A stretch of DNA of 64,000 nucleotides, taken from positions 4,014,501-4,078,500 of the forward strand of contig NZ_CP131914.1 of the NCBI RefSeq assembly GCF_040529045.1. The letters run 5' to 3'. Shown in pieces: positions 53,119 through 53,672 of this stretch. The notes below the pieces were generated by a model. That model had not been told where the DNA came from. It made no database searches and saw only the letters and a program-made list of their open reading frames with translations. Origin of the DNA: Xanthomonas indica (GTDB lineage: Bacteria > Pseudomonadota > Gammaproteobacteria > Xanthomonadales > Xanthomonadaceae). The number at the start of each line of letters is the position of its first letter. Within the stretch, counting starts at the first letter, position 1. A program made the position numbers and the translations under genes.

Positions 53119-53588
53119 CCGTCGTTCCTCAGTAATTCGGCTTCAGTGATTTCAAGAACTTTCAATGCATCGTGCAGCGCGTCGTCCATGCCGCGCGGGC
53201 GGAAGCTGCCGGCGCTGAGCGCCGCCACCCGCACCTGCGCGCGCAACAGCAGTTCCCCGTCGTCGCGGCGGATCGACTGCGCGAACACCAGGCTGGCGCG
53301 CTTGCACTGCGACAGCGCGACGCCGACCTGCAGGGAGTCGTCCAGGCGTGCCGGGCGCAGGAAGTCGAGTTGCATCGCGCGCACCGCGAACACCAGGTCG
53401 TGTTGCAGGCGCAGGCGTTCCTGACCATACCCCAGCGCCCGCAACCACTCCGTGCGCGCCCGCTCCAGGAAGGCCACGTAGCGCGCGTGGTAGACCACGC
53501 CACCGGCGTCGGTATCTTCCCAGTAGACGCGTGTCGGCCAACTGAATAGCCGGGAATCGGGGACAGGGAATGGGGAATCGGGAGTCAA
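53115..53588 (-). CDS. ybgC: YbgC, acyl-CoA thioesterase of the Tol-Pal operon
   Basis: A 157 aa hot-dog-fold thioesterase. The catalytic motif YWEDTDAGGVVYHARYVAFLERARTEWLR starts near residue 21. The usual N-terminus (xLFxWPxRVYxEDTD) here begins at LFSWPTRVY with no ATG before it. Upstream codons come from a G-run repeat (TPDSPFPVPDSR). The best start is TTG at 53588, which has AGGAG eight bases upstream; a GTG at 53621 is the alternative. The gene is first in the tol block and is coupled to tolQ. Confidence 0.92.
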   Translation of the reverse strand: MTPDSPFPVPDSRLFSWPTRVYWEDTDAGGVVYHARYVAFLERARTEWLRALGYGQERLRLQHDLVFAVRAMQLDFLRPARLDDSLQVGVALSQCKRASLVFAQSIRRDDGELLLRAQVRVAALSAGSFRPRGMDDALHDALKVLEITEAELLRNDG

Positions 53589-53672
53589 GAGCAGCGCTCC
53601 TGTCGGTAGCTGGTTAACCACAACATCCTAGAACAGCGCCCCCGATTCCCCATTCCCGATTCCCAATTCCCG
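53549..53672. repeat. Paired G-run inverted repeat overlapping both the ybgC start and the ruvB end
   Basis: The left arm 53549-53582 (GGGAATCGGGGACAGGGAAT and on) is translated as the first residues of YbgC. The inverted right arm 53638-53672 is translated as the last residues of RuvB (RELGIGNGESGALF). The 124 bp element therefore spans the junction and contributes both coding ends. Confidence 0.88.

What the first reader, a model, noticed from the sequence alone, without database searches (positions are those of the whole stretch)
53549..53672. One repeat element supplies both the RuvB C-terminus and the YbgC start
The right arm encodes the last 13-14 residues of RuvB (RELGIGNGESGALF) and its stop. 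The left arm encodes the first residues of YbgC (TPDSPFPVPDSR), whose normal ATG before LFSWPTRVY is absent. A TTG at 53588 with AGGAG eight bases upstream is the best new start. A 124 bp non-coding repeat thus appears to have been absorbed by two essential-pathway genes at once.
Basis: partly seen in the sequence, partly recalled or inferred. Interest (0 to 1): 0.75.

Follow-up and report, generated by a model that had tools for sequence, protein, structure and literature searches.

The report
Repeat hairpin shared by two genes
A hairpin-forming DNA repeat lodged where two neighbouring genes meet spells most of the tail of one protein (RuvB) and, very probably, the head of the next (YbgC), and related bacteria carry different versions of the hairpin while both reading frames stay open.

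Summary
Inverted 33-nt heptamer-repeat arms (88% complementary, 58-nt loop) join ruvB to ybgC; one arm encodes most of RuvB's tail, the other YbgC's first residues. The repeat family is known (GGGNATC, PMC4692102) but described as mainly intergenic. In 39 of 44 compact repeat-free junctions the ybgC start lies inside ruvB, so an insertion there would meet no gap. TTG 53588 is supported: TTG in 7 of 7 loci of this allele type, ATG at the same place in 11 of 11 loci of two other types; eight loci of a third type use another TTG. RuvB's Leu-Phe end is not a gift of the repeat: [LM]F is in 137 of 140 tails of the order. New: arm sequences agree in 26 of 28 repeat-bearing loci; a strain of the same species carries another arm-loop-arm allele although adjacent 300-nt windows are 99% identical; presence needs at least nine changes on a weak tree; a further copy runs in frame into RuvC in 8 of 8 close genomes. 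Best reading: a known repeat, exchanged as a unit, serving as replaceable coding termini. Translational coupling is inferred. Peptide data were not searched.

The parts
53628..54665 (-). ruvB, 345 aa including the repeat-derived tail
53641..53673 (-). repeat arm (G-rich on the mRNA) encoding RuvB residues RELGIGNGES
53628..53639 (-). codons A-L-F and stop TAG at the loop edge; LF conserved with or without the repeat
53583..53640 (.). loop; alike in 7 A-type alleles, unlike the loop of B-type alleles
53597..53601 (-). AGGAG, probable ribosome-binding site of ybgC
53586..53588 (-). TTG, probable ybgC start; lies in CAAGAGC (other strand), an inner end that recurs on arms of the family
53550..53582 (-). 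repeat arm (C-rich on the mRNA) encoding YbgC residues DSPFPVPDSR
53115..53588 (-). ybgC, 157 aa from the TTG
54670..54820 (.). another copy, its first arm about 5 nt upstream of the ruvB ATG
57427..57525 (.). another copy, between ruvC and ruvA; loop orientation differs between relatives
58054..58191 (-). another copy, open in frame into RuvC (RILGIDPGS)

Best explanation
The feature is an inverted pair of the known GGGNNTS heptamer repeats of the Xanthomonas family. In relatives with a compact junction ybgC starts inside the end of ruvB, so a repeat entering such a junction has to supply coding sequence on both sides: one arm becomes a spacer between the RuvB body and its conserved Leu-Phe end, the other carries the YbgC start (TTG at the inner end of the arm, AGGAG upstream) and its first dozen residues. 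The arm-loop-arm block is then replaced as a unit, within and between species, most likely by short-tract homologous recombination, with both frames kept open. Shown: anatomy, comparative states, matched arms, an allele difference confined to the block. Inferred: that TTG is the start, that recombination does the replacing, and that the mRNA hairpin, opened by ribosomes finishing RuvB, couples YbgC translation to that of RuvB.
For: Arms and enrichment. Compact junctions: in 39 of 44 an in-frame ybgC start (ATG in 38, GTG in 1) begins 4-17 nt before the end of the ruvB stop codon. Start: TTG 13-14 codons before the FSWPTR anchor in 7 of 7 A-type loci with AGGAG or GGGAG 8 nt upstream; ATG 14 codons before it in 5 of 5 C-type and 6 of 6 loci of the X. 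arboricola group; TTG overlapping the ruvB stop in 8 of 8 B-type loci. [LM]F in 28 of 28 repeat-bearing RuvB tails, LF at the very end in 26. Arms agree in dialect in 26 of 28 loci; within-locus mean 42.2 against 30.7 across loci, 0 of 20000 permutations as high. In 18 loci of the genus 488 of 558 cells pair and 39 show double changes, 0 of 2000 row shuffles as high for either. Junction dialect is the commonest of four in the own genome in 14 of 19 genomes, permutation mean 6.2, 3 of 20000 as high (counts). Same-species strain G085 carries another allele: identity to the window 0.990 / 0.823 / 0.990 in successive 300-nt windows; 18 of 18 fixed A/B differences in ungapped columns of 3.56 kb lie in 53563-53667. 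Predicted mRNA hairpin -73.1 kcal/mol, z -7.5.
Against: No peptide or ribosome data were looked at. 'Compact' was set by my own cut-off (at most 16 nt from the ruvB stop to the anchor), which favours overlap; 65 of the 109 loci of the order without either repeat have longer junctions. A slide of one heptamer pairs nearly as well (0.86 against 0.87), so covariation shows matched repeats, not one exact register; a locus's own YbgC arm is the best match to its RuvB arm in only 8 of 28 loci, and permutations do not remove shared ancestry. In 5 of 19 genomes, the window's among them, the junction does not carry the commonest dialect; outside that set G137 has AAT at the junction but 7 AAT and 313 ATT matches. 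L023 and L159 show no in-frame start upstream of the anchor. LF lies inside the left arm, which one simple insertion does not explain. The tree is a quick one with 48 of 134 inner branches open.
Confidence: 0.72

Rival explanations
1. The repeat is only a spacer or terminator-like hairpin; the open frames through the arms are accidental, because heptamers without stops read through in several frames, and YbgC starts at another codon.
For: The family is mainly intergenic (89-93%, PMC4692102); an alternative GTG exists at 53621; L023 and L159 show no in-frame start in the repeat.
Against: [LM]F is reached in frame through the arm in 28 of 28 repeat-bearing RuvB tails. In the window no ATG precedes LFSWPTRVYWEDTDAGG in frame, and the start position is conserved as TTG or ATG in 18 of 18 A-type, C-type and X. 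arboricola-group loci.
Confidence: 0.15
2. The matched arms are kept by selection for an mRNA hairpin that regulates ybgC, and the protein sequence is a by-product.
For: Strong predicted fold; compensatory arm changes; in the minimum-energy fold CAGGAGC, which holds the ribosome-binding site, pairs with GCUCUUG, which holds the start codon; in the centroid only four of these pairs remain.
Against: Paired copies elsewhere in the genome have matched arms too, so matching looks like a property of the family. Of six loci of the X. arboricola group five (L032, L035, L036, L127, L128) score 11-17 for pairing, at or below their shuffle maxima, while both frames stay open; the sixth, L124, scores 22 against 16.
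Confidence: 0.2
3. The alleles were not recently exchanged; A and B types are an old polymorphism kept through speciation, with recombination eroding linkage in the flanks.
For: A-type and B-type loci each occur in more than one part of the genus tree.
Against: None found; the genomes at hand do not separate this from short-tract transfer.
Confidence: 0.3

Closest known systems
GGGNATC / GGGAATC quadruplex-forming repeats of Xanthomonas (Rehm et al. 2015, PMC4692102; abstract, passages and sections 10, 13, 14, 16 read)
   Same: Same heptamer, mostly four units, 70-75 convergent inverted pairs per genome; repeats overlapping stop codons mentioned; ruvA named as a repeat-associated gene.
   Different: Described as mostly between genes, function open. 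One pair serving two gene ends, arms changing together between species, a same-species allele difference and the RuvC case are not in the parts read; 'ruvB' does not occur in the main text.
Rickettsia palindromic elements (Ogata et al. 2000; seen only through passages of the reviews PMC2229807 and PMC10969869)
   Same: Short dispersed palindromes found in frame in conserved protein genes.
   Different: Those passages describe in-frame insertions in single genes; here one copy ends one reading frame and begins the next. No sequence comparison with them was made.
Microdiversity / dimorphic loci (Touzain et al. 2010, PMC2884548; abstract and passages read)
   Same: Small segments of two alternative sequences between conserved backbone, many inside genes.
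   Different: In E. coli most do not match known repeats (palindromic units in 16% of microdiversity loci); here the variable segment is a repeat element with matched arms.

Membership tests
GGGNATC repeats of Xanthomonas | tandem GGGANTN heptamers with at least one GGGAATC | tested here: met
   minus strand: GGGAATT GGGAATC GGGAATG GGGAATC GGG
GGGNATC repeats of Xanthomonas | inverted (convergent) pairs, mostly of about four units | tested here: met
   one search found 18 such pairs and 72 arms of three or more units in 864 kb of this genome (window plus 40 stretches of 20 kb)
GGGNATC repeats of Xanthomonas | intergenic position (usual, not strict) | tested here: not met
   both arms lie in reading frames; Rehm et al. 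report 7-11% intragenic
GGGNATC repeats of Xanthomonas | G-quadruplex formation | not testable with these tools
   PMC4692102 reports CD spectra of consensus oligonucleotides
Protein-coding palindromic elements (Rickettsia type) | dispersed palindrome translated in a conserved protein | tested here: inconclusive
   conserved open frames, no peptide evidence
Protein-coding palindromic elements (Rickettsia type) | whole element in one frame within one gene | tested here: not met
   at ruvB-ybgC the RuvB frame stops at the loop edge; at RuvC the element is open throughout in 8 of 8 genomes
MITE / REP with transposase | target-site duplication and a partner transposase | not tested
   no transposase or duplication search was made
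Invertible DNA segment | loop present in both orientations between the same flanks | tested here: not met
   not met at this site: A and B loops match in neither orientation; met at 57425-57530 between {G085, G018} and {G003, G005}, 4 of 4 comparisons

The most novel reading that the evidence does not exclude
The repeats form a genome-wide set of replaceable protein-terminus cassettes: an element-targeted process (breaks at cruciforms or quadruplexes repaired from incoming or sister DNA, or an unknown recombinase) swaps and occasionally inverts whole arm-loop-arm blocks and keeps their arms in step, so that RuvC, RuvB and YbgC of closely related strains carry different ends although the rest of each protein is nearly identical.
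Probability: 0.25. Interest if true: 0.75.

Novelty: new variant of a known kind. Interest (0 to 1): 0.58.

Why it matters
If true, it gives the abundant and functionally unexplained Xanthomonas heptamer repeats a concrete consequence (they rewrite the ends of conserved DNA-repair and envelope proteins), shows how a repeat can enter a junction of overlapping genes without destroying either, and offers natural allele pairs with which to test whether protein tails, hairpins or both are under selection. It also exposes a conserved Leu-Phe near the end of RuvB in this order.

Tried and rejected
Considered and dropped: A and B alleles as inversions of each other (no match in either orientation). 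A common loop marking a classical transposable element: of 153 loop pairs from 18 paired elements of this genome 3 exceeded the shuffles by more than 6. A structure of the RuvB tail was not obtained: structure prediction was busy; the best solved RuvB match covers residues 2-330, before the tail. A first flank analysis lost the B-type genomes because of my anchors and was replaced. Literature searches; no paper of that library holds ruvB, ybgC and Xanthomonas together. A clamp-binding role of the RuvB LF was looked for without a relevant passage; it stays a guess.

Rows dropped: 13 of 213 loci gave no usable junction and 33 of 200 were duplicates, leaving 167; 27 unique loci outside the order (L080-L110) were left out of the tree and of the count of 140. 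Of the 140, 28 carry the heptamer pair, 3 another inverted repeat, 44 are compact and 65 longer. Three loci (L020, L159, L180) below my pairing threshold were added by eye to the 28; L022, L205 and L184 (the other repeat) were taken out. The dialect test of 19 genomes leaves out G002 and G016 (arms decayed), G085 and genomes without the repeat at the junction.

Full report
What is there. On the minus strand the order is ruvC - repeat - ruvA - kup - repeat - ruvB - repeat - ybgC - tolQ. The repeat between ruvB and ybgC has arms 53550-53582 and 53641-53673, 33 nt, 88% complementary, with 58 nt between; its pairing score is 46 against at most 18 in 30 shuffles. The 17-nt core occurs 23 times in the window with up to two mismatches where 0.01 is expected. 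It belongs to the GGGNATC heptamer repeats described for Xanthomonas (PMC4692102). The genus label rests on G015, 'same genus' as the window's genome, whose contig has the length of a named Xanthomonas bonasiae contig and the same junction sequence (L009 and L031).

Both gene ends are in reading frames. RuvB ends HRELGIGNGESGALF; the arm covers RELGIGNGES. The YbgC frame passes through the other arm as TPDSPFPVPDSR before LFSWPTRVYW. Of 140 unique junctions of the order 28 carry the heptamer pair, 3 another inverted repeat, 44 are compact (at most 16 nt from the ruvB stop to the YbgC anchor) and 65 are longer. In 39 of the 44 compact ones an in-frame ybgC start (38 ATG, 1 GTG) begins 4-17 nt before the end of the ruvB stop codon; for example Stenotrophomonas L039, RuvB ..DLFAEIPDVG and YbgC MSVDPRFSW. 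An insertion into such a junction meets no non-coding gap.

The start codon. One search looked at 36 loci. Seven of the window's allele type (A: window, L002-L005, L009, L011) have TTG 13-14 codons before the anchor with AGGAG or GGGAG 8 nt upstream. Five C-type loci and six loci of the X. arboricola group have ATG 14 codons before it. Eight B-type loci have TTG 23 codons before it, overlapping the ruvB stop, in six of them as the only candidate. Of ten loci of other genera seven have a TTG 9-16 codons before the anchor (L020, L034, L047, L048, L172, L195, L198; the only candidate in L047, L048 and L198), L180 has ATG, L023 and L159 have none. Several arms of this genome end inwards in CAAAAGC or CAAGAGC, which read on the other strand contain TTG, so the start codon may come from the element itself. 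This is inference.

The RuvB end. [LM]F occurs in the RuvB tail of 137 of 140 loci of the order, against a mean of 9.9 and a maximum of 18 in 200 rounds of shuffled tails; 28 of 28 repeat-bearing loci have it, 26 of them as the very end; 12 of 27 loci outside the order have it. The repeat thus sits in a variable linker before a conserved end whose role is unknown.

Arms change together. In 26 of 28 repeat-bearing loci the commonest heptamer of the two arms agrees (AAT, ATT, ACT, ACC or GGTGATT type). Own pairs score 42.2 on average, foreign pairs 30.7, and 0 of 20000 permutations reached the observed mean; a locus's own YbgC arm is the single best match in 8 of 28, since near relatives share arms. 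In 18 loci of the genus 488 of 558 cells pair and 39 are double changes (shuffle mean 15.4, 0 of 2000 as high), but a slide of 7 nt pairs nearly as well, 0.86 against 0.87. Counts of four dialects in whole genomes show the junction carrying the commonest dialect of its own genome in 14 of 19 genomes, where permutations give 6.2. The window's genome is one of the five exceptions (117 AAT, 206 ATT, junction AAT). Further genomes: that of L047 (junction GGTGATT) has 144 GGTGATT matches but 175 AAT, partly in long arrays; that of L048 (RuvB arm GGGAGAC, YbgC arm mostly ATT) has 9 GGGAGAC and 19 ATT; of the ten genomes searched, 6 and 8 had no match to these two patterns. G137 speaks against (junction AAT, genome 7 AAT and 313 ATT).

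Different within a species. G085 is listed as the same species as the window's genome. Its element is of B type: other arms, other loop, RuvB tail RDSGMGIGDTGALF. Successive 300-nt windows are 0.990, 0.823 and 0.990 identical to the window. In ungapped columns of a 3.56-kb alignment 18 of 18 differences fixed between four A-type relatives and three B-type genomes lie within 53563-53667; at 53397 and 53796 the window shares an allele with G085 and with none of the four A-type relatives, so a swapped tract would be under 400 nt. At other flanking positions G085 differs from the window and from all four A-type relatives. Of 40 windows over 12 kb the five least alike between the two strains are the four that hold repeat sites and one, 58901-59200, without a listed repeat. 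Alleles at the different repeat sites group the genomes differently. G085 has 17 AAT and 235 ATT matches, the window's genome 117 and 206.

Gained more than once. On a RuvB+YbgC tree of 140 rows the presence of the heptamer pair needs at least 9 changes; the tree is a quick one with 48 of 134 inner branches open. In L022, L205 and L184 an unrelated inverted repeat (AAAAGGGGTCAGAGTGAATTT and the like) occupies the same junction, with RuvB ending ..EKGSE or ..EKGAE.

RuvC as well. The copy at 58054-58191 is open along its length into RILGIDPGS in 8 of 8 close genomes, and the RuvC profile begins only at residue 61 of that ORF. In 19 of 19 genomes of the genus no ATG stands one or two codons before RILG; three have GTG directly before it. 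Among 11 loci outside the genus four have MT and two GTG-T there. Repeat units upstream are hardly recognisable in G002 and G016 (0 and 1 unit), so the repeat explains the missing start only where it is present.

How it most likely works. Shown: the anatomy, the comparative states, the matching of arms, the difference confined to the block. Inferred: translation from TTG; exchange by short-tract recombination; a role of the hairpin. The element's predicted fold is -73.1 kcal/mol, z -7.5, with CAGGAGC (ribosome-binding site) paired to GCUCUUG (start codon); the centroid keeps only four of these seven pairs. A ribosome finishing RuvB would open the long stem, which could couple the two proteins as gene overlap may do in compact relatives; termination-reinitiation at overlapping genes is established (PMC10666635, passages). 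This coupling is a hypothesis.

Verdict.

Noticed in passing
57425-57530; L253-L259: The element between ruvC and ruvA has its loop in opposite orientation in {G085, G018} and {G003, G005} (reverse-complement scores 39-48 against 20-25 forward).
   Followed up: partly
58043-58225: RuvC's usual ATG before RILGID is missing in 19 of 19 genomes of the genus; in 8 of 8 close genomes the frame continues through a repeat element.
   Followed up: partly
53631-53636 and RuvB tails of 140 loci: Conserved [LM]F near the RuvB C-terminus, most often preceded by D, then E, G or A; it resembles, from recall, a sliding-clamp-binding end. Function unknown.
   Followed up: partly
L022, L205, L184: A different inverted repeat (AAAAGGGGTCAGAGTGAATTT type) sits at the same ruvB-ybgC junction and codes for part of the RuvB tail.
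   Followed up: no
54660-54700: A repeat arm begins about 5 nt upstream of the ruvB ATG; I see no obvious ribosome-binding site there.
   Followed up: no
47040-47235: At this repeat site G085 and G018 carry an unrelated allele that contains another inverted repeat, GGAGCGGCTTCAGCCGC (the site was recovered in 2 of 7 relatives).
   Followed up: no
L259 (G006), site 57.4 kb: The element between ruvC and ruvA appears as three tandem copies in G006 (read by eye).
   Followed up: no
10936-11254: Tandem 140-nt units that begin with CCTCTCCC..GGGAGAGG palindromes.
   Followed up: no
58901-59200: One more window of low identity (0.847) between the two strains of the species, without a listed heptamer repeat.
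   Followed up: no
G036 (another family of the order): Many of the same heptamers in all four dialects searched, up to 283 ACC-type matches, in a genome outside the family.
   Followed up: no
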